Under the pieces are notes generated by a model. It did no database searches. It saw only the letters and a list, made by a program, of their open reading frames with translations, and had not been told where the DNA came from. A stretch of DNA of 64,000 bases, from contig QUBZ01000006.1 in NCBI GenBank assembly GCA_014338005.1, forward strand, positions 1 through 64,000. Direction: 5' to 3'. This stretch comes from Chloroflexota bacterium (GTDB lineage: Bacteria; Chloroflexota; Anaerolineae; Aggregatilineales; Phototrophicaceae). Both the position numbers and the translations under genes were made by a program. Shown here piece by piece: positions 7,241 through 64,000 of this stretch (the first letter of the stretch is position 1; each line of letters begins with the position of its first letter).

Positions 7241-8440
7241 ATGCGCGTTCTTTTGCTCACTCAGGTGCTTCCCTACCCGCCGGACAGCGGGCCGAAGGTT
7301 AAGACCTACTATGTCCTCAAATATCTGGCGCGGCAGCACGCCGTGACGCTGGTTTCGTTCGTGCGGGATGGCGACAGGCCGGAACACATTCGCCACCTGG
7401 AAACCCTCTGCGAGCGGGTCGTCACCGTGCCGATCAGCCGCTCACCCGTCCGCGACCTGGGTTTCCTGTTCAAAAGCCTGGCCGGCGGCCAGCCCTGGAT
7501 GATGCTGCGCGACGAGCGCGCGGAAATGCAGGCCGCCCTGCGCGAACTGGCGACGGCGCGCTTCGACGTGGTACACGCCGACCAGCTTAACATGGGACAG
7601 TACGCCCTGCCCTTTACCGGCAGCCGCAAGGTTCTTGACCTGCACAACGCCCTGTGGGTGCTGTACAAACGGCTGGCCGAAACCTTGCCGCCGACCAAAC
7701 CGATGAAATATATCCTGCTGCGGGACTGGCGGCTGCTTAAACGATACGAAGGCGCGCTGTGCCGCGCTTTCGACGCCGTGACGGCCGTCAGCCAGGAAGA
7801 CCGCGCCGCTTTGATCGAAGCCGGCGCGCGCGACGACATCGTGGTAATCCCCATCGCCATTGATACCGACGAACAGGCTTTCATCGAGCGGCAGCCCGCC
7901 GGGCCGCACATCGTCCACATCGGCACCATGTACTGGCCGCCCAATATTGACGGCATCACCTGGTTTCTGGACGAAATTTACCCGCTCATCAAACAGCAGA
8001 TACCGAATGTTCGCTGCACGCTGATCGGCGCGCGCCCCCCGGCCAGCATCGTGGAACGCGCCCAGAACGACCCCTCGCTGACCGTCACCGGCTACGTCGA
8101 AGACCCGCTGCCCTATCTGCGCGACTCCAGCATGATGATCGTGCCGCTGCGCGCCGGCGGCGGGATGCGCGTGAAAATCCTCAACGCGCTCTCGCAGGGT
8201 ATCCCGATGGTCAGCACTACCGTCGGCTGCGAGGGCATCGCGGTCGAAAACGACCGGGATATTCTGATCGCCGACGAGCCGCAGCCGTTCGCTGCCGCCT
8301 GCGTTCGCCTGCTGGCGGACGCGGATTTGAACGCGCGCATCACCCGCGCCGGACGCCAGACCGCCGAGCAGCAGTACGACTACCGGCAGGCCTGCCGCCC
8401 GCTGGATGAAATTTATATGCCCCAGGTGCTTAAACCATGA
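7241..8440 (+). CDS. Glycosyltransferase, GT4 family (GT-B fold)
   Basis: 399-residue cytoplasmic glycosyltransferase. The N-terminal acceptor half begins MRVLLLTQVLPYPPDSG, typical of GT4 enzymes. The C-terminal donor half contains GTMYWPPNIDG and VPLRAGGGMRVKILNALSQG with the conserved Lys and following TTVGCEG loop that contacts the nucleotide sugar. It should transfer a hexose from a nucleotide sugar to a lipid-linked oligosaccharide during repeat-unit assembly. Its stop overlaps the next glycosyltransferase start as ATGA. Donor and acceptor are unknown. Confidence 0.88.
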   Translation: MRVLLLTQVLPYPPDSGPKVKTYYVLKYLARQHAVTLVSFVRDGDRPEHIRHLETLCERVVTVPISRSPVRDLGFLFKSLAGGQPWMMLRDERAEMQAALRELATARFDVVHADQLNMGQYALPFTGSRKVLDLHNALWVLYKRLAETLPPTKPMKYILLRDWRLLKRYEGALCRAFDAVTAVSQEDRAALIEAGARDDIVVIPIAIDTDEQAFIERQPAGPHIVHIGTMYWPPNIDGITWFLDEIYPLIKQQIPNVRCTLIGARPPASIVERAQNDPSLTVTGYVEDPLPYLRDSSMMIVPLRAGGGMRVKILNALSQGIPMVSTTVGCEGIAVENDRDILIADEPQPFAAACVRLLADADLNARITRAGRQTAEQQYDYRQACRPLDEIYMPQVLKP

Positions 8441-49916: not shown

Positions 49917-50747
49917 CTAGGCAGAGGCTTTTTCGACGGGGAACTGGATTTCGGTTACAGCGTCCGCCGGGGCACAGCCGCCCGCCAGATAGATTTCGCG
50001 CGGCGGGCCGACCACACGGTAGCCGTTGGCCTCGATCCAGCGGCCAATCGCCAGGTAGACATCACCCAGGCCGCTGTAATCACCTTTGTGGACGGCGCAG
50101 GCCGCCTGCGGCACGGCGGGCAGGTCATGTGCCGTCATGTGCCGTCCACCCGACAGGTCAATCGTTTGTGGGCTGCCGGCTGCTACCGGAAAGGCAAACT
50201 CGATGTCCATGTCAGCCGCCGCGAATGCTTCGTCATAGTACAGGCAGAACGGCGGAGCGATCATCTCCACGCCGGCCATCTGGAGCGACTGCATGGTTTC
50301 ATTCCAGATGGTTCCAAGGTGGTCGAAGGTCGGCACGATTTGCCGCAGCGAAAGGATACGCTGTGCGGGCAAAGGCTTGAGAAGCACTTCATAGTCGGGC
50401 ATTTTATCCTCCATTTCGATTTGTCTCAGGCGGGCTTCCACCCGCGCCAGCCGTTCCTGCTCCTCGCGCACGCGCTGCTGAAGTTCGGCCTGTTTGAGCC
50501 GGAACATGCCACGAAGCTGCTCCGGCGTCAGGCATTCGTCCAACACCTGCGCGATCTGTTCCAGCGACAGCCCCAGGTCTTTTAGCGCCAGGATGCGGTT
50601 AAGCCGGGGAAGCTGGTCAAACGAGTAGTAGCGGTAGCCGGTGAAGCGATCAATGCGCGCCGGTTTGAGCAGGCCGAGTTCGTCGTAGTAGCGCAGGGCG
50701 CTCACCGGCACCTGTGTCAATCTCGAAAAGTCACCGATCTTAAACAT
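49917..50747 (-). CDS. MerR-family regulator with GyrI-like effector domain
   Basis: 276 residues. The N-terminal MerR HTH reads MFKIGDFSRLTQVPVSALRY, then YYDELGLLKPARIDRFTGYRYY. A coiled coil (about 80-115) carries the dimer contact. The C-terminal half (about 120-270) is a GyrI/AraC-effector-binding-type barrel: YEVLLKPLPAQRILSLRQ, ending in EIQFPVEK, as in BmrR. It should sense a small hydrophobic ligand and activate a promoter with 19-base spacing. AAGGGGAAA precedes the ATG. Its regulated gene is not evident; the neighbours are nfi and a broken nuclease gene. Confidence 0.9.
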   Translation of the reverse strand: MFKIGDFSRLTQVPVSALRYYDELGLLKPARIDRFTGYRYYSFDQLPRLNRILALKDLGLSLEQIAQVLDECLTPEQLRGMFRLKQAELQQRVREEQERLARVEARLRQIEMEDKMPDYEVLLKPLPAQRILSLRQIVPTFDHLGTIWNETMQSLQMAGVEMIAPPFCLYYDEAFAAADMDIEFAFPVAAGSPQTIDLSGGRHMTAHDLPAVPQAACAVHKGDYSGLGDVYLAIGRWIEANGYRVVGPPREIYLAGGCAPADAVTEIQFPVEKASA

Positions 50748-50858
50748 GGTTTCCCCTTTGCGCGCGTCAGGCTAACCCGAGCGGCTGGCCGGGCCGCCCC
50801 TGCATCCTTATCATGCACCCTCAAGCGGCTTGAGAGTCAAGGGGGTGCGGGCAACAAA

Positions 50859-50891
50859 AACGCCGCGTCCGGCAAATCGAACGGCGGCGTT
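50859..50891 (-). terminator. Intrinsic terminator after the restriction-modification genes
   Basis: AACGCCGC at 50859-50866 pairs with GCGGCGTT at 50884-50891. On the minus strand a T-run (AAAAA at 50856-50860 on the plus strand) follows. It ends 11 bases past the nuclease stop. Confidence 0.6.
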
Positions 50892-50901
50892 AGCGGCGGA
50901 T

Positions 50902-51540
50902 TTATATCGCCAGGTCAAGCGGCAAATCGCTGATGTCTCGTAAACGATGGCCGTCTATCAGCGTCATCAGCATATCCAGTTGGGCGTCGCTCTGCGTTCG
51001 ATTCACGGCTTCGATCAGCTCATTCAGCGCGAAATGATAGACATGATCCACATCGCCCGTTCCCAGAGCCACCGAAGCCAGGCGTGTCGGCAGCGGCTCA
51101 GCCGTAACAACCATGACATGCGGCGTGCGCCCTTTTCGATTGCGGATGAGGTTCAAGCCCTCGGTGCGGACATTCTGGGCCCGGTCGCTGCGAATCGTCC
51201 ATTTACAGGAGATGCTGGCGTGAAGTATCAGATTGGGCTGATTCCTGGCTCTCAAAGAACTATAATGGCAAAAATCGTCCGCATCACCGACAACCGTCTG
51301 ATGTGTGTTAATTTCCTCATCCGTCACCGGATAACGCGCAACGACAATATCCGGCGTGATGAGATAATCGCCCCCCAAAGCCGCCCTTAACTGTGGGTTG
51401 TCTGAAACCGCCGCCTGAATCGCGGCCAGATGATGATACTGGTCAAAACCGGCAATAGTCGCATTCAGCGAGAATCGCCACTGTCCAGGCCGCAGATGAT
51501 GCAGCAGGGCAAAAGCCTGCTCTAAAAAATCTCTGGTCAC
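50902..51540 (-). pseudogene. NgoMIV-type restriction endonuclease, C-terminal three quarters
   Basis: 212 residues from GTG 51540, strongly resembling NgoMIV, a tetrameric nuclease for GCCGGC: LLHHLRPGQW, TPDIVVARYPVTD, LHASISCKWTIRSDRAQN, LNLIRNRKGRTPHV and ISDLPLDLAI. The catalytic Asp (PDIVV) and Lys (SCKW) are present, but the family's first Glu lies just upstream (PGQGLGSQFE, one codon before GTG 51540 and outside the open frame after the last stop). The true N-terminus is encoded at 51606-51803 in a different frame. At least two lesions separate the parts, so the gene looks broken. Confidence 0.8.
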
Positions 51541-51605
51541 AAGTTCAAACTGGCTGCCCAGTCCTTGACCGGGGATGAGGTCTGAGGTTAGTCAACGACC
51601 AGCCG

Positions 51606-51803
51606 CTAAAGCGGCCGGCTTGTCCCTGGCGCTGCGCCCGCCGCTTCGGTGACAGCAGCAGTGATGGCGGGTGCATCCGAGACAATATCCCGACTGGCGC
51701 GGCTGGCTTTATCGGCGATGTTAACCAAATAATCACGATTTGTCCGCAGTACATCCCGACAAAGACGCTGATGATACTGACGACGTAATTCGGCGATGCT
51801 CAT
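51606..51803 (-). pseudogene. N-terminal fragment of the NgoMIV-type nuclease gene
   Basis: ATG 51803 overlaps the methyltransferase stop as TGATG and reads MSIAELRRQYHQRLCRDVLR, then DYLVNIADKASRASRD, as in the first helices of NgoMIV-like enzymes, before a TAG at 51606-51608. The C-terminal frame only opens below an in-frame TGA at 51592-51594. So no single frameshift joins the two parts. Confidence 0.65.
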
Positions 51804-53110
51804 CACTGCCCCTCTACAGGTTTAAAGAAGCCAATCACGTATTCCTCGTGCATTCGCTTTTCAATCTGTGAATCGGCGTCGGTTTGCCGGCGCGCCGGCA
51901 TCATCCGGCGATTACGGTCTATGCGCCGGACGCCAATATGCGGCACTTCAAAACCGAGACTCTGTCCGATCTCTGCCAGGCAGCCGTGTACGTTCTTATC
52001 CCCCCGCAGGCGCGAACTGCCTACCACCATCACGGCAGCTTTTCCCGACTTTAATACGCGGAACATCTCACGCAGAACGCGGGTCATTTCGGAATAATAG
52101 CGTTCGACTGCGCGGCCTTTTTTATGATCCAAAGCGGCGACGGCGGCGATCACCTGCCGCGTTTGATCGGGTAGCGGCTCGAATTCCACGCCGTTTACTG
52201 CCTCGCTGCCAATATAGGCTTTACGAAGCTCCGACAGCGAGTCGAGTTTATAACCGAGCCAGACCAATGAGAATTTATGGGCGCGCATGTAGTCAATCGC
52301 GTTTGAGGGATACGGCGGGGATGTGACCACCAGGTCTATTGTACTGTCGCGCAGCGAAAGTGCCTGAGCATTGCCCATACTGATAATCGGAGCGAGGCCG
52401 TTTGCAGGCAGATCAGCCAAGCTGCGAAGGTTGCGCTGAAAGCGTTTTTCAAACTCCTTCACAGGTGACCGGTATCTTTTGTCCGCGACCTTATGCGGGC
52501 GCGTATGCGCCAGATCAAAAGCCAGCGAAACCCCGCCCGACTTTGTAATAATGATGGCTGAAAGTGTCAGGGCGAGAAAAGCGCGAATCCGGTCATCACG
52601 CACCTGCCGGATTTCGTCCAGCAGGAAAATCAACTCCCGCTGCGACTCGCGGTCAAACCAGTAATCCACAAACTCCTGTGTTCGTGTATCCAGAAGCATC
52701 GTCGGGATGTCATCAGCAGCATCAAACAGGCGTGTTTTTACGCGGCTGATGACTCGGCTGCCGGCCTCTGCCGCTTCGATTAACGGGAGCGGCGTGGTTT
52801 TTACGCGGCAGACATGCAGCGCCAATGGGTCAATATCCACAATCACAGGCTGCCGGCCGGCGACAAACGCCTCCAGCGGCGTGGTGCCAGAACCGGCCAT
52901 CGGATCGAGAACATGATCGCCCGGCATCGTCAGCGCCTCAATAAACTTTCGCGGCAGCTGCGGGGGGAACTTGGCCGGAAAAGCGTGAAGATCGTGCGTA
53001 TATTCGCTGCTGGAGCGATTGTGAAAGTCCAGGTCATCGGACAGCAGCGCGATCAGTTTTTCTTTCAGCCGTTCCGCTTCGCGCAGCTGGGCATCCTGGG
53101 GATATAACAT
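51803..53110 (-). CDS. DNA methyltransferase, TSPPY (N4-cytosine) type
   Basis: 435 residues. Motif I DPMAGSGTT is at 69-77 and motif IV TSPPY at 263-267, with EYTHDLHAFPAKFPPQLPRK near the N-terminus. TSPPY marks N4-cytosine methyltransferases; motif I before motif IV is not the usual beta order. It should protect the site of the adjacent NgoMIV-like nuclease (GCCGGC by family, inferred), unlike M.NgoMIV which is a 5-methylcytosine enzyme. The reading frame is intact. TGATG couples it to the nuclease. It follows rpoB after a terminator. Confidence 0.85.
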   Translation of the reverse strand: MLYPQDAQLREAERLKEKLIALLSDDLDFHNRSSSEYTHDLHAFPAKFPPQLPRKFIEALTMPGDHVLDPMAGSGTTPLEAFVAGRQPVIVDIDPLALHVCRVKTTPLPLIEAAEAGSRVISRVKTRLFDAADDIPTMLLDTRTQEFVDYWFDRESQRELIFLLDEIRQVRDDRIRAFLALTLSAIIITKSGGVSLAFDLAHTRPHKVADKRYRSPVKEFEKRFQRNLRSLADLPANGLAPIISMGNAQALSLRDSTIDLVVTSPPYPSNAIDYMRAHKFSLVWLGYKLDSLSELRKAYIGSEAVNGVEFEPLPDQTRQVIAAVAALDHKKGRAVERYYSEMTRVLREMFRVLKSGKAAVMVVGSSRLRGDKNVHGCLAEIGQSLGFEVPHIGVRRIDRNRRMMPARRQTDADSQIEKRMHEEYVIGFFKPVEGQ

Positions 53111-53185
53111 TGTTTCGCTTAACCCATCAAAGTCCAGTTATCATCCCTATCATAGCCGAAGAACAAAGTTTCGCCTAGCGCGGGA

Positions 53186-53226
53186 AAACAAAAACGCCGC
53201 GCCACCAAAAGACGATGGCACGGCGT
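53186..53226 (-). terminator. Intrinsic terminator of rpoB
   Basis: Stem ACGCCGCGCCA (53194-53204) with TGGCACGGCGT (53216-53226), one internal mismatch, followed on the minus strand by TTTTTGTTTT (A-run 53186-53194). It lies 24 bases after the rpoB stop, isolating rpoB from downstream genes. Confidence 0.75.
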
Positions 53227-53249
53227 CGGCTGCGGATGAAGCAGAAACG

Positions 53250-57182
<3,933 letters not shown>

Positions 57183-57533
57183 CGCACCGCTCCTCAATCC
57201 ATTCAGCTAAACGAGAATGCCTCGAGTCGCAACACTCATCGGCAGATTATGGGGAATAGATAATCCGATCAAAAGAGGAACAACCTAGAAAAACGCGAAC
57301 CATAAGTATAACGAAAATAGCCATCTGAGTCAATCATCAGTTTGGCGCGGTCTGTATGCAAGTCGCACAAAAGTACGACGCAAGGTTATTTTATTCGTAC
57401 ATTTTCCCTGCGCGAAATTAACCTGTCTTAAGGCTTGTGCGCGCCTTTTGGCATTTACAATGAATTTATCCTTACTACAAATTGCCCTGCACGCCGTCGT
57501 AAACCGCGCCAGCGCGCCAAGAGGTAAACAGCT
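57183..57533. other. Divergent regulatory region between rpoB and the Cache sensor
   Basis: No gene is seen here. It holds the rpoB leader (about 115 bases) and promoter. On the plus side it has an inverted repeat GTACGA (57373-57378) and TCGTAC (57395-57400), a possible -10 TACAAT at 57456-57461 with weak -35, and the GAGGTAA site before the ATG at 57534. Nothing else could be assigned. Confidence 0.5.
57305..57333 (-). promoter_or_regulatory. rpoB promoter
   Basis: On the minus strand TTGACT (57333-57328) is followed after exactly 17 bases by TATACT (57310-57305), each one mismatch from the sigma-70 consensus. Transcription would start near 57298, 115 bases before the rpoB start. Confidence 0.8.
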
Positions 57534-59480
57534 ATGTCCGTTTCCCAGACACCGTCAATGCCCAGACGCACCATGCTGGGGCCGCTTGCCAACCTTCCCA
57601 TTTATGCCAAATTGATCCTGGCATTTCTGTTTGTGGCCGCGTTTGCTACCCTCACCGTCATCTACTTCACCAACCAGGCCGCCGCCGACAACCTGCTCCT
57701 CACCGTCGGCACCACCCTGCGCGCGCGCGCCGTCGCCCATGCCCAAACCATAGACAACCTGCTGCGGGATCGTGTGGTCGGCAACCTGCAAACGCTGGCT
57801 TTAGCCGATCAAATTGAGAACGCGGTGGCAAAACAGAATTCCGAATATACCGGCGGCATCCCCCAGATTCGCGCCGAGATCGGCCAGATTGACCGGCAGT
57901 GGGTCGCGGCTGCCGACTCTCATCCGATGATTGAAAGCCGCCTGTTTAACGCCGTCGCCGACAACCTGCGGCAGTACCGCAGCAAGTTTGTTGACCACAC
58001 CGAGATTTTTGTCACCGACCGCTATGGCGCGCTGGTGAGCGCCACCAACCGCACCAGCGACTACGACCAGAGTGATGAGGAGTGGTGGCAAAAAACCTGG
58101 AACAACGGCCAGGGAGCCGTTTACATCGGCCAGCCGGAATACGACGACAGCGCCCGCGCCTACAGCATCGTGGTGAGCGTGCCGATTTATGCCCGCAGCA
58201 GCGGCGATTTAATCGGCGTTTTACGCACCACCTACCTGCTCACTTCCATTCTGGATGTCATCAGCAGTTTCGAGGCCGCAGAAACCGGTCGCGCCGACCT
58301 GTATCTGCCCGGCGATAAAGTGCTGCCGCACGACGACCTGAACGATGTTCAGTTCAGCCCCGATGATACAGCCGATTTAAAAACCCTTGAAAACCTGCCT
58401 TACGGCCAGATCACCCTTGAAGGCGACTCGGTTCTTGCCACCCAGGTCCCGCTGGCTTCAGTCACCCAGTTGGATTACGTGGCGAACCTGGGCTGGACGC
58501 TGGTCATCCATCAGGATGTGACGGAAGCCTTCGCCCCCCTGGCCGGCGCGGCGCAGGCCTCCGTCCTGGCCGGCGGGGTTGTGATGATTGTGGCAATGGC
58601 GCTGGTATTCGTGGTGGCGCAGATCATCGCCGCACCAATCCGGCGGCTGAGTGCGACCGCCCGGCAGATCGCCGCCGGCGACCTGAGCGCCCGCGCGGAC
58701 ATCGCCTCGCGCGACGAAATCGGCCAGATGGCGCAGACCATGAACGAGATGGCCGACCAGCTGCAAGACCTGATTAACACGCTGGAAGCGCGCATCGCCA
58801 GCCGCACCCGCGACCTGGAAACTGCCGCCCAGGTGAACGCGCAGATTTCCACCATTCTGGATACCGACCGCCTGCTGCAAGACGTGGTAGACCTGACTAA
58901 AGAACGCTTCGGCCTGTACCACGCGCACGTGTATCTGTTAAGCGAGGACGGGCGCGCGCTGATCCTCACCGCCGGCGCGGGCCATGTGGGGCGGCAGATG
59001 GTGTCCGAAGGGCAGCGCATTGAGATGCAAAACCCGCAGAGCATCGTGGCGCAGGCCGCCCGCACCCGCCAGATCGTCACCGTCAACGACGTTTCGGCGT
59101 CCCCGAGCTTTTTGCCCAACCCGCTGCTGCCGGATGCCCAGGCCGAACAGGCCATCCCGCTGATCGCGCGCGGCCAACTGTTGGGCGTGCTGGATATTCA
59201 AAGCGCGCGGGTGAATCACTTCACCCAGGACGCCCAATCCACGATTGAAGTGCTGGCCGGCCAGATCGCCACCGCCATCAGCAACGCCCGCCTGTACGAA
59301 GCGGCAGAACGCACCAGCCGCCACGAAAAGGCGCTGGGCAGCATTGACCGGAAAATCCAGGAAGCGGTGAATATGGACGAAATCCTGCAAGCGACCGTGC
59401 GCGAACTGGGCAAGGCGCTGCGCGTGCCGTACACCGCCATTGAACTGCAGCTTCAGGGCGAGGATGAAACATCGCAATGA
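57534..59480 (+). CDS. Cache-HAMP-GAF membrane sensor without output domain
   Basis: 648 residues. Membrane helix about 26-46; an extracytoplasmic double-Cache-like domain (about 50-340; TEIFVTDRYGALVSATNRTS, WWQKTWNNGQGAVYIG); second helix about 345-372; HAMP (IRRLSATARQIAAGDLSARA); coiled coil; one GAF domain (about 430-590; LPNPLLPDAQAEQAI). The C-terminus ends just as another GAF begins (ALGSIDRKIQEAVNMDEILQ), and there is no kinase or receiver domain. It may signal through a partner, or be a shortened version of the paralogue at 60598. It precedes the NMT1-like lipoprotein gene. Confidence 0.88.
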   Translation: MSVSQTPSMPRRTMLGPLANLPIYAKLILAFLFVAAFATLTVIYFTNQAAADNLLLTVGTTLRARAVAHAQTIDNLLRDRVVGNLQTLALADQIENAVAKQNSEYTGGIPQIRAEIGQIDRQWVAAADSHPMIESRLFNAVADNLRQYRSKFVDHTEIFVTDRYGALVSATNRTSDYDQSDEEWWQKTWNNGQGAVYIGQPEYDDSARAYSIVVSVPIYARSSGDLIGVLRTTYLLTSILDVISSFEAAETGRADLYLPGDKVLPHDDLNDVQFSPDDTADLKTLENLPYGQITLEGDSVLATQVPLASVTQLDYVANLGWTLVIHQDVTEAFAPLAGAAQASVLAGGVVMIVAMALVFVVAQIIAAPIRRLSATARQIAAGDLSARADIASRDEIGQMAQTMNEMADQLQDLINTLEARIASRTRDLETAAQVNAQISTILDTDRLLQDVVDLTKERFGLYHAHVYLLSEDGRALILTAGAGHVGRQMVSEGQRIEMQNPQSIVAQAARTRQIVTVNDVSASPSFLPNPLLPDAQAEQAIPLIARGQLLGVLDIQSARVNHFTQDAQSTIEVLAGQIATAISNARLYEAAERTSRHEKALGSIDRKIQEAVNMDEILQATVRELGKALRVPYTAIELQLQGEDETSQ

Positions 59481-59553
59481 CACACCCTCACCCACAAAAA
59501 CCCTTTATAAACAACCGATGCGGTTTAAACCCGATAAAGGAAGGTCAGTTAGC

Positions 59554-60567
59554 ATGTCCCCTCAAACACGCTTGCACATAACTTTGATGCTCATTCTGGC
59601 CGCTGTTCTGGCCGCTTGCGGCGGTCAGCCCGCTTCGCCAACTGCCGCCCCGCTGACCGAAACCAGCATCCAGTTTTCCTGGCTGGCAAACAACGAATTT
59701 GCCGGTTTTTATATGGCCCAGAGTGAGGGCTACTACACTGCCGAGAACTTAAAGGTTGAATTTGTGCCCGGCGGTTTTGACGACCAGGGGAGCTACATCA
59801 ACCCTATTGAACAGGTTGCGACAGGAAATGCTGATTTTGGCGTTGCGGATGGGGCGGATTTACTCGACGCGCGGGCGCAGGGAAAACCGGTTGTCGCCAT
59901 TGCTTCGATTTTCCAACGTCACCCGGAGGCTTATGTCTCGCTGGCCGAGAAAAACATTGTCCGTCCCGAAGATTTGATCGGGAAGAAAGTGCTGGTTGCG
60001 ACCAAAGCCAAAATCCTGCTGAATGCGCTTCTGGCAGCTCAAAACATTGACCCTTCCCAGGTGGACATTATTGACCGCACGGACTTCAGCTTCCAGCCTT
60101 TACTGACCGGTGATGTAGATGTGATTGATGCCTTCATCACAGATGCTGTTGTCCGGTTGAAAGCGGAAGGCCATGCCGTCAACAGCATTCTGCTGACCGA
60201 CTACGGAATCGATTCCTACCCCAATGCCATCTTTACGACCGAAGATATGGTTAAAAACAAACCAGACGTTGTAGAGCGTTTTCTGCGGGCAACCCTGAAG
60301 GGGATTCAGAGCGCCGTTGACAACTCTGAAGAGGCAGCCAAACAAGTCCTCGTTTACAACCAGGACCTTACCCTGGAGTCGCAGCTCCAGGGCCTGCAGG
60401 CCGCCCTGCCGCTGTTCAAACCAGCCGGCGCTAACCCTGGCATGATGACCGCGCAAACCTGGGAATTTACGGCCAACATGCTGCTTGAACAGGGTATTTT
60501 GCAGCAGTCGCCAGAACTCAACCAGGTTTACACGCTGGAATTTCTGAACAAAATCTACGGCTCGTAG
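59554..60567 (+). CDS. NMT1/THI5-like substrate-binding lipoprotein
   Basis: 337 residues. Signal peptide with lipobox (VLAACGG), Ala/Pro/Thr spacer, then an NMT1/THI5 (SsuA/ThiY-like) periplasmic-binding domain: FSWLANNEFAGFYMAQSEGY, FGVADGADLLDARAQGKPVV, and hydrophobic core. Such proteins bind pyrimidine precursors, sulfonates or nitrate-type ligands for ABC transporters. Here no permease or ATPase gene is adjacent; two membrane sensors flank it, so it may feed a signalling rather than a transport system. ATG 59554 follows AAAGGAAGG. An upstream frame extension overlaps the previous gene. Confidence 0.88.
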   Translation: MSPQTRLHITLMLILAAVLAACGGQPASPTAAPLTETSIQFSWLANNEFAGFYMAQSEGYYTAENLKVEFVPGGFDDQGSYINPIEQVATGNADFGVADGADLLDARAQGKPVVAIASIFQRHPEAYVSLAEKNIVRPEDLIGKKVLVATKAKILLNALLAAQNIDPSQVDIIDRTDFSFQPLLTGDVDVIDAFITDAVVRLKAEGHAVNSILLTDYGIDSYPNAIFTTEDMVKNKPDVVERFLRATLKGIQSAVDNSEEAAKQVLVYNQDLTLESQLQGLQAALPLFKPAGANPGMMTAQTWEFTANMLLEQGILQQSPELNQVYTLEFLNKIYGS

Positions 60568-60597
60568 GCGGTAAAAAACGAGCGGCGGAGATCAACT

Positions 60598-61506
60598 ATG
60601 AAACAACCACCCGGAAAAATATCGCTTCCCTTCCGGCGACAATTTCGCTGGAATTTGACCGCTTACTCGCTTTTGCTGGCCCTTATACCCATACTGTTTG
60701 TCGCCTATATCGTGCTGACCGGCGAATATCAGCAGACGGTTGGGTCGGTCACGAACCAGCTTGAGTCGGTCGCCACTCTGAAACAAAACCAGATTAACTT
60801 CTGGCTGAATCAGGTGAATGCGGGAGCTAACCGAACACTTGTTAATGTCAACGGCCCGGCTGTTGAACTGACCATCGTCTCCAACGAAAAACGCGAAACG
60901 TCCCGTTCCATTCTCAACAGCATCCTGCGACAGCTCACGCGGGTTAATGACCTTTTCGACGAAACGTTCGTTTATACCCTGAACGGCGAGGTGCTGGCGG
61001 CGTCGAATGAGGTGCGAGTCGGCCAGCGCGTGACGGCGCAGCCCTACTTTCAGGCCAGCCTGACGGGCGACTACTTGCAGTCGCCATATTACGAACTGGG
61101 CAGCAGCGCGCTGACAATGGTAGCAACCCGCCAGATCATTGATGAAGATGGGCGAATTGCTGCTGTCATGGCGGTGCGGCTCAATCTCGACATTCTCGGC
61201 CAGATCATGGCCGAGCGCGCCGGCCTGGGAGAAACGGGCGAAACCTATCTGGTCAGCAGCGAAAGCAACTATCTGCTCACCCCCAGCCGGTTTGAAGAAT
61301 ATATTCAGACGCGCGCTTACCACAGTGAAGGCATTGATAACGTCCTCACCGGGCAGAACGGCGCGGGAACATACCCAGACTACCGAGGCGAACCGGTCAT
61401 CGGCGTTTATAAGTGGATTCCTGAGCTAAATGCCGGCCTGCTGGCCGAAGTAGACGAAGACGAGGCGCTCGCCAGTTACTACGAGACGGCGCGCGCCAGT
61501 GGATAG
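60598..61506 (+). CDS. Cache sensor, N-terminal part, ended by an in-frame TAG
   Basis: 302 residues to the TAG at 61504-61506. Membrane helix about 25-45, then a double-Cache-like domain (about 50-295; VGQRVTAQPYFQASLTGDYL, LVSSESNYLLTPSRFE, and GVYKWIPELNAGLLAEV). The stop falls exactly before the second membrane helix. Two codons later the same frame continues from ATG 61510 into TM2, HAMP and GAF with no gap in homology to the sensor at 57534. The TAG probably replaced TGG. Alone, this part would be a membrane-tethered Cache domain with no way to signal. Coupled 31 bases downstream of the lipoprotein gene. Confidence 0.8.
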   Translation: MKQPPGKISLPFRRQFRWNLTAYSLLLALIPILFVAYIVLTGEYQQTVGSVTNQLESVATLKQNQINFWLNQVNAGANRTLVNVNGPAVELTIVSNEKRETSRSILNSILRQLTRVNDLFDETFVYTLNGEVLAASNEVRVGQRVTAQPYFQASLTGDYLQSPYYELGSSALTMVATRQIIDEDGRIAAVMAVRLNLDILGQIMAERAGLGETGETYLVSSESNYLLTPSRFEEYIQTRAYHSEGIDNVLTGQNGAGTYPDYRGEPVIGVYKWIPELNAGLLAEVDEDEALASYYETARASG

Positions 61507-61509
61507 GCG

Positions 61510-64000
61510 ATGGCGATAGCAGGGCTGGCAGCCGCTTTCACCGCGCTGTATTATGCCAACCGCGTTGCAAAACCCATCGCGGCGCTGACACGAACTGCCG
61601 AGCAGATCGCCGGCGGCGACCTGAGCCAGCGCGCCCACATTCGCTCGCGCAATGAAATCGGCCTGCTGGCACAGGCGTTTAACAGCATGGCCGAGCAGCT
61701 TCAGGAGTTCATCGGCAGCCTGGAAAACCGCGTTGCCGCCCGCACGCGCGACCTGGCGCTGACGCTGGAAGTCGGCCATCTGGCGACCAGCCTGTACACG
61801 CAGAAAGACCTGCTCACCAGCCTGGTAAACTTCATCCGCGACCAGTTTGACCTGTATTATACCCAGATTTACCTGCTGGATGAGGCCGGACTCCACGCCG
61901 TGCTGCGCGCCGGTACGGGCGAGGTCGGTCAGCAGCTTTTAGCGCGCAATCACCGCCTGAATTTAAGCGAAACCTCGCTGGTGGCGCGCGCCGTCCAGAC
62001 CAACCAGCCGGTGCTGGTGGCGGACACGCAAACCAGCGCCATCCACAAAGCCAACCCGCTGCTGCCGGATACCCGGTCAGAAGTGACCATTCCGCTGGTC
62101 GTGGGCGGCGTCATCATCGGCGTGCTGGACATGCAGTCGAACCGCGAGGGGACTTTTAACCAGGAAAATCTGCCGGTGTTTGAAGCGATGGCAAGCCAGA
62201 TCGCTTCGGCGCTGCGCGGCAGCCAGGCGTTTGAGGAAGCGCAGGCCGCCATTCAGCGCGCCGAGATGGTCAACCGGCGGCTGACCGAAGAAACCTGGGA
62301 CAGCTACCTGGGGCAGCTTGGCGAAGGCCGCTGCCTGGGCTACCAGTACGACCTGGAAGCGCCGCGCCCGCTGGAACCCCACAGCAACGGCCACGATGAC
62401 GGCAGCCGCATCGTCCAGCCGGTTTTCCTGCGCGGCCAGCCCATCGGCAAAATCGTGATCGCCGAGGATACTGAGCGCCAGTGGAAGCCGGAAGAAATGC
62501 TGCTGGTTGAGGATGTCGCCAAGCGCGTCGCCCAGGCGCTCGACCAGTTCCGCGCTTTTGACCAGATTAAACAGGCCGAAGCCGAAACCCGCAAGCGCGC
62601 CGCCGAACTTCAGACGGTGGCCGAGGTGAGCGCAGCGACCACCACCCTGCTCGAAATTGACGACCTGCTGCTGGCCGTCAGTGACCTGACCAAAGAGCGC
62701 TTCGGCCTTTACCATGCCCATATCTACCTGCTCGACGAAGCGGGCGAAAACCTCGTCCTGGCCGCCGGCGCAGGCGAGGCCGGGCGCATCATGAAAACCG
62801 AAGGCCGCTCCATCCCGCTCAACCATCCGCACAGCCTGGTCGCCGGCGCTGCCCGCGAACACAAAGGTGTGGTCGTCAACGACGTGACCCGCACGCCGGA
62901 CTTCCTGCCCAACCCGCTGCTGCCGGATACCAAGTCCGAAATGGCCGTGCCGATGCTGGTCGGCGATCAGCTCATCGGCGTGCTGGACGTGCAGGCCAGC
63001 GTCACCGACCGTTTCACCAGCGAAGACGTGCGGGTGAAAACCACGCTGGCCGCTCAGGTGGCCGTCGCCGTCCAGAATGCCCGCGCCTACATGCAGACCA
63101 AACAGCAGGCCGCCATCATCGAAACCTCGCGCGATTTCATCTCGCTGGCCGACCTGAATGGCAAAATCCTCTATGTCAATCCTGGCGGCCTGGAGATGGT
63201 CAGCAGAAAATCCTTCGCGGACACAAACATCGCGGACTTCTATCCCGAAGACGAATACCGCCGAATCGAGCAGGAAGCCCTGCCCACAGCCCTCCAGGTA
63301 GGCTACTGGCGCGGCGAAGTCAGCCTCCGTAAAACCGACGGCAGCACCCTGCCGGCAGACGAAACAATCTTAGTCGTGCGCGACGCCGACGGCATTCCGA
63401 CCAATTTCGCTACCATCATCACCGACATCAGCGAGCGTAAGCAGGCGCAGGCCGTTCTGGAAGAAAACGAGGCCCGCTTCCGGTCGCTGGTCAGCAACGT
63501 ACCCGGCATCATCTACCGCTGCGCCATTGACGAGTTCTGGACGATGCAGTTCATCGGCCCGGCCATCGCCGACTTGACCGGCTACCCGGATACCGACTTC
63601 ATCCAGAACAACGTGCGTTCCTACGCCAGCGTCATCCACCCGGACGACACGGCGAAAGTGGACGAAGCGGTGTGGCGGGGCGTGGAAAACCGGATGCCCT
63701 ACGAAATTGAATACCGGCTTGTCCACGCCGACGGAACCGTCCGCTGGGTGAACGAGCGCGGCCAGGCCGTTTACGGTCAGGACGGCACGCCGCTGTGGCT
63801 GGACGGCGCGGTTTTCGACATCACCGAAAGCAAGCGGGCCGAGGCCGAACGCGAACAACTGCTGGCCGAAATGCAGCGCAATGCCCGTTTGATCCGCACC
63901 GTGATTGACGCCACGCCGGACTGGATTTTCGCCAAAGACCGCGACTACCGCTATATTCTGGCGAACCAGGGTTACGCCAACGCCATCGGCACAACCACCG
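61510..64000 (+). CDS. HAMP-GAF-GAF-PAS-PAS sensor, continuation of the interrupted gene (partial)
   Basis: Open frame from ATG 61510 to the end of the window (about 830 residues, incomplete). One membrane helix (AIAGLAAAFTALYYANRV), HAMP (IAALTRTAEQIAGGDLSQRA), coiled coil, GAF 1 (ANPLLPDTRSEVTIPLVVGG), a degenerate GAF-like region, GAF 2 (LPNPLLPDTKSEMAVPMLVG), PAS (FISLADLNGKILYVNPGGLE), a second PAS/PAC (HADGTVRWVNERGQAVYGQD) and the start of a third PAS. A kinase or cyclase output beyond 64000 is expected. It is in the same frame as the preceding gene, with only the amber codon between. The start used here could be an internal re-initiation site. Confidence 0.85.
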   Translation, partial: MAIAGLAAAFTALYYANRVAKPIAALTRTAEQIAGGDLSQRAHIRSRNEIGLLAQAFNSMAEQLQEFIGSLENRVAARTRDLALTLEVGHLATSLYTQKDLLTSLVNFIRDQFDLYYTQIYLLDEAGLHAVLRAGTGEVGQQLLARNHRLNLSETSLVARAVQTNQPVLVADTQTSAIHKANPLLPDTRSEVTIPLVVGGVIIGVLDMQSNREGTFNQENLPVFEAMASQIASALRGSQAFEEAQAAIQRAEMVNRRLTEETWDSYLGQLGEGRCLGYQYDLEAPRPLEPHSNGHDDGSRIVQPVFLRGQPIGKIVIAEDTERQWKPEEMLLVEDVAKRVAQALDQFRAFDQIKQAEAETRKRAAELQTVAEVSAATTTLLEIDDLLLAVSDLTKERFGLYHAHIYLLDEAGENLVLAAGAGEAGRIMKTEGRSIPLNHPHSLVAGAAREHKGVVVNDVTRTPDFLPNPLLPDTKSEMAVPMLVGDQLIGVLDVQASVTDRFTSEDVRVKTTLAAQVAVAVQNARAYMQTKQQAAIIETSRDFISLADLNGKILYVNPGGLEMVSRKSFADTNIADFYPEDEYRRIEQEALPTALQVGYWRGEVSLRKTDGSTLPADETILVVRDADGIPTNFATIITDISERKQAQAVLEENEARFRSLVSNVPGIIYRCAIDEFWTMQFIGPAIADLTGYPDTDFIQNNVRSYASVIHPDDTAKVDEAVWRGVENRMPYEIEYRLVHADGTVRWVNERGQAVYGQDGTPLWLDGAVFDITESKRAEAEREQLLAEMQRNARLIRTVIDATPDWIFAKDRDYRYILANQGYANAIGTTT

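What the first reader, a model, noticed from the sequence alone, without database searches (positions are those of the whole stretch)
60598..64000. Large Cache-HAMP-GAF-PAS sensor split by a single in-frame amber codon
Frame from 60598 stops at TAG 61504-61506 and continues in the same frame from codon 304 to the window end. The domain series across the stop (Cache, then TM2, HAMP, GAF) matches the intact paralogue at 57534. TGG to TAG in GGATAGGCGATGGCG is the simplest explanation. Possibilities are a real lesion, a strain variant, amber read-through, or a two-protein arrangement using ATG 61510.
Basis: seen in the sequence. Interest (0 to 1): 0.6.

Follow-up and report, generated by a model that had tools for sequence, protein, structure and literature searches.

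The report
Sensor kinase gene with nonsense codon
A large bacterial sensor gene carries one lone stop codon where its two closest relatives encode tryptophan, so this is most likely an ordinary recent mutation (or a base error in the assembly) and not a new kind of gene.

Summary
In detail: the frame from 60598 stops at TAG 61504-61506 and is otherwise open. It runs beyond the window to TAG 66037-66039, giving 1813 codons with one internal stop. The whole gene is a dCache-HAMP-GAF/PAS histidine kinase ending in HisKA and HATPase_c. The two nearest relatives held (G005, 90% protein identity over the sensor; G006, 69%) have TGG at this codon and an open frame across it. All 19 relatives examined have a sense codon there; only those two have Trp. 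The possible restart Met at 61510 is in 1 of those 19 and has only a 3-base Shine-Dalgarno match, so a conserved two-gene arrangement is not supported. None of 43 tRNAs found has a CUA anticodon, so read-through has no visible machinery. Both sides of the stop show purifying selection since the split from G005 (window-branch omega 0.39 before, 0.16 after), so the stop is recent or a consensus error. Reads are needed to choose. Ordinary. Side observations may be worth more: a conserved threonine-synthase-like enzyme fused to two receiver domains directly downstream, and a nearby NgoMIV-type restriction gene broken by a repeat fragment.

The parts
60598..61503 (+). 5' part of the sensor histidine kinase gene: TM1 and dCache_1 sensor (302 codons)
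   Evidence: dCache_1 E 1.5e-21; TM1 by hydropathy at residues about 18-45; 90% identical to G005
61504..61506 (+). in-frame TAG, codon 303; TGG in G005 and G006
   Evidence: sense codon in 19 of 19 relatives
61510..64000 (+). same frame continued: HAMP, GAF and PAS modules; goes on outside the window to 66039 (HisKA, HATPase_c)
   Evidence: ATG 61510 not conserved (1 of 19)
59554..60567 (+). NMT1/THI5-like substrate-binding protein just upstream (start inferred)
   Evidence: NMT1 E 9.1e-53, on the ORF from 59440; weak SsuA-family hit, under cut-off
57534..59480 (+). intact dCache-HAMP-GAF protein of 648 aa, no kinase domain found; the comparison paralogue
   Evidence: 84% identical to the G005 copy

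Best explanation
The gene at 60598-66039 was until recently one intact membrane sensor histidine kinase (TM1, periplasmic dCache, TM2, HAMP, GAF/PAS array, HisKA, HATPase_c). In the genome sequenced here one G-to-A substitution turned the Trp codon at the start of TM2 into amber. If real, most product is a 302-residue dCache fragment held by TM1 and cut off from the kinase. The large downstream frame is lost, or made at a low level from ATG 61510 as a kinase without its sensor. Shown: the stop, the intact relatives, and constraint on both sides. Inferred: TM2 by position, that the change is real, and what the product does.
For: One stop in 1813 codons, no frameshift. TGG in both nearest relatives with the frame open across it. 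19 of 19 relatives with a sense codon there. Pairwise dN/dS window-G005 is 0.226 before and 0.229 after the stop. Window-branch changes give omega 0.39 before (95% upper 0.75) and 0.16 after (upper 0.34), so there has been no long neutral decay. No suppressor tRNA among 43. The part of the contig compared with G005 has few broken genes, so the sequence does not look generally error-ridden.
Against: A single wrong consensus base in a draft assembly would look the same, and no reads are available. The constraint after the stop is also what an error, or a still functional product, would give. For codons 304-560 alone the upper bound on omega is 1.11, so that shorter stretch decides nothing.
Confidence: 0.65

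Rival explanations
1. Consensus or assembly error: the organism has a sense codon here and the gene is intact.
For: Single base, otherwise perfect frame with constraint on both sides. The gene holds internal repeats and differs in module number from G005, which makes it a hard region to assemble. The genome is a 214-contig assembly.
Against: The stop lies about 350 codons before the rearranged stretch, in sequence that is about 95% identical to G005 with no indel nearby. No other lone nonsense codon was found among the flagged genes that I inspected.
Confidence: 0.25
2. Working two-protein arrangement: ribosomes stop at 61506 and restart at ATG 61510, giving a dCache protein and a separate TM2-HAMP-GAF kinase.
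For: Only 3 nt lie between stop and ATG. In E. coli reporter pairs coupling dropped by 5, 20 and 70% at 2 nt, and about 20 nt nearly abolished it in the six pairs tested (PMC10666635, abstract and passages). The downstream frame is under constraint.
Against: No stop in any of 19 relatives; Met at codon 305 in 1 of 19, and G006 has ACG. The Shine-Dalgarno match is only 3 bases, 2 nt from the ATG. The split separates TM1 plus sensor from TM2 plus HAMP.
Confidence: 0.07
3. Amber read-through or a sense meaning of TAG in this organism.
For: Long open frame behind the stop.
Against: No CUA anticodon among 43 of 43 tRNAs; the same gene itself ends in TAG; relatives have TGG or another sense codon here.
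Confidence: 0.03

Closest known systems
dCache_1-HAMP-GAF/PAS sensor histidine kinases (Pfam PF02743, PF00672, PF01590/PF13185, PF08447/PF08448, PF00512, PF02518)
   Same: Full domain series in one frame if the stop is ignored; intact relative of 2614 aa in G005
   Different: One internal amber codon; four GAF stretches where G005 has seven
Recent nonsense allele or young pseudogene (general knowledge)
   Same: Lone stop, intact relatives, constraint on both sides
   Different: Whether it is real rather than a base error was not testable

Membership tests
Sensor histidine kinase | HisKA and HATPase_c in the gene | tested here: met
   HisKA E 5.9e-21, HATPase_c E 1.1e-33, outside the window but in the same frame
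Sensor histidine kinase | Sensor and kinase in one continuous reading frame | tested here: not met
   TAG at codon 303; met in G005
Recent nonsense allele | Close relatives intact at the site | tested here: met
   TGG in G005 and G006; 19 of 19 sense
Recent nonsense allele | Base call backed by reads or a second strain | not testable with these tools
   No reads; one genome per species held
Split gene pair with coupled restart | Stop and restart codon conserved among relatives | tested here: not met
   Stop in 0 of 19, Met in 1 of 19
Amber recoding or suppression | tRNA with CUA anticodon | tested here: not met
   0 of 43 tRNAs; genome 96.78% complete, so one could be missing

The most novel reading that the evidence does not exclude
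The stop plus ATG 61510 has just created a two-polypeptide receptor: a dCache half and a kinase half made by restart, so that the kinase feeding the downstream enzyme-receiver fusion has lost its direct link to the sensor in this lineage.
Probability: 0.05. Interest if true: 0.45.

Novelty: already known. Interest (0 to 1): 0.12.

Why it matters
It matters mainly as a caution: an automatic annotation would call two genes here, and a survey of sensors would count a 302-residue dCache protein and a 1509-residue kinase that are one gene in relatives. If the stop is real, it would be a natural loss-of-sensing allele in a system that lies beside the same receiver-fused enzyme in several related genomes.

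Tried and rejected
Read-through was tested by anticodon census and rejected. A class II synthetase search (PF00587) gave five hits that I did not identify further; no dedicated search for a pyrrolysyl enzyme was made. The two-gene reading was tested by conservation of stop and start and rejected as a conserved arrangement. A general error rate for the assembly was sought by comparing genes of the contig with G005. The flagged cases that I inspected were the glycosyltransferase at 8437 (differs at its end only), the region 45.7-46.2 kb (no Pfam domain in the flagged reverse-strand ORFs) and the restriction gene (real interruption). The flags near 19.7, 25.4 and 88 kb I judged to be start differences or opposite-strand ORFs without inspecting them. 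Hydropathy at a cut-off of 1.6 showed TM1 but not TM2 in either sequence; TM2 rests on its position before HAMP. Rfam gave nothing in 50000-64000; DNA folding of the repeat fragment was no better than shuffles. Paper searches gave no precedent that I used (listings only); in those three listings I saw no paper on this gene.

Full report
Observation. The frame that starts at ATG 60598 meets TAG at 61504-61506 (codon 303) and is open in the same frame to the end of the window. The window is bases 1-64000 of contig C43 of a 4.82 Mb, 214-contig genome. Taken beyond the window, the frame ends at TAG 66037-66039: 1813 codons with a single internal stop. The two neighbouring forward frames of the same stretch have 59 and 51 stops. 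The open frame is therefore coding sequence and not chance.

What the gene is. Pfam finds dCache_1 before the stop. After it come HAMP, four GAF stretches, PAS folds, HisKA and HATPase_c. It is a large sensor histidine kinase, of which the window shows about the first 60%. Upstream lie an NMT1-like substrate-binding protein and a 648-aa dCache-HAMP-GAF protein without a kinase domain. Downstream, 12 bases after the stop codon, starts a 708-aa protein with a PALP domain and two receiver domains. Its best NCBIfam hits are threonine synthase models, below their cut-offs, and the translation holds SSFKDR, which I recall as the usual lysine motif of this enzyme class.

Relatives. Of 61 genomes searched with the 302-aa sensor part (own genome included), 36 have a match, and no listed match has a stop inside. 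That query ends before codon 303, so I aligned a longer piece to 19 loci (L008-L026, all the loci returned other than the window's own; L006 was left out as a copy of L008). All 19 have a sense residue at position 303: Trp in the two nearest, other residues in the rest, with a two-column gap just before it in L015. The nearest, G005, has TGG and one frame of 2614 aa. The same contig is named in public data as Anaerolineae bacterium AMX57, a name that occurs in the study PMC9942424 on Chloroflexi of wastewater reactors (listing and passages seen). G006 also has TGG and is open to its contig end.

Selection. Pairwise dN/dS between window and G005 is 0.226 before the stop and 0.229 after it, to codon 830. 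Changes assigned to the window's branch with G006 as outgroup are 16 silent and 15 not before the stop, and 22 and 8 after it. For G005 the same counts are 19 and 8, and 68 and 59. The difference between branches is not significant before the stop (Fisher P 0.18) nor, at the 0.05 level, after it (P 0.064). The relatively higher share of amino-acid changes in the window's sensor part could hint at relaxation, but the numbers are small. Both parts reject neutrality over the whole branch (P 0.007 and 2e-6). The stop is thus recent against the split from G005, or it is not real.

Two proteins or read-through. ATG 61510 follows the stop by 3 bases. Such a distance allows restart in reporter tests in E. 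coli (PMC10666635, abstract and passages). But Met at this place occurs in 1 of 19 relatives, G006 has ACG, and the only Shine-Dalgarno match is AGG, 2 bases from the ATG, against GGAG at 7 bases for the real start at 60598. For read-through, all 43 tRNA genes found by Rfam in the genome were typed with ARAGORN and none has a CUA anticodon. With 96.78% completeness one could be missing.

Error or lesion. Comparison of the contig with G005 shows gene-by-gene collinearity over most of about 92 kb, in several blocks. Among the flagged cases that I inspected, one other gene is broken, by an insertion and not by a base change. This speaks mildly against a generally poor consensus but cannot settle one base. 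No reads are held.

Module number. Codons 1-843 of the window gene align with codons 1-843 of G005, and codons 589-1813 with 1399-2614. From codon about 650 to 800 the window gene is nearer to G006 (92-94%) than to either of the two closest G005 copies (78-90%), and from about codon 950 on it is again about 95% identical to G005 at an offset of about 801 codons. G005 thus has extra GAF/PAS modules, or the window copy lost them; collapse in assembly is possible.

Verdict. An ordinary nonsense codon, real (most likely) or a base error, in one copy of a conserved kinase gene. Interest is low. The fused enzyme downstream is the more curious object. In 8 of these 19 (own included) the two lie on one contig within 7 kb, in 2 they are over 150 kb apart, and in 9 they are on other contigs (genes between were not checked). 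My two paper searches for such a fusion gave no paper on it; I saw the listings and one paper's two passages, which concern ordinary thrC expression.

Noticed in passing
L005:9053-11179 (contig position 66052-68178, outside the window): 708-aa threonine-synthase-like PALP domain with SSFKDR motif fused to two receiver domains, just after the kinase gene; full-length relatives in many genomes of the order, in 8 of 19 compared genomes within 7 kb of a dCache sensor match. Probably the output partner of the kinase; two paper searches gave nothing on such a fusion.
   Followed up: partly
50902-51806, minus strand; insert about 51591-51687: NgoMIV-type restriction gene interrupted by about 97 bp that recurs in at least 10 further near-identical copies in the genome, mostly at contig ends and there part of a longer repeat with a common right end; G005 has a whole gene. 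A DNA methylase-like gene follows at 51803-53110.
   Followed up: partly
62500-63500 and L079:200-8041: The kinase differs in number of GAF/PAS modules between relatives: four GAF stretches here, seven in G005, with the change between codons about 650 and 950.
   Followed up: partly
L005:9053-11179 and G000:C114:39807-41447: A second, shorter group of about 560 aa matching the enzyme and first receiver part at 43-51% identity is found in many of the genomes searched.
   Followed up: no
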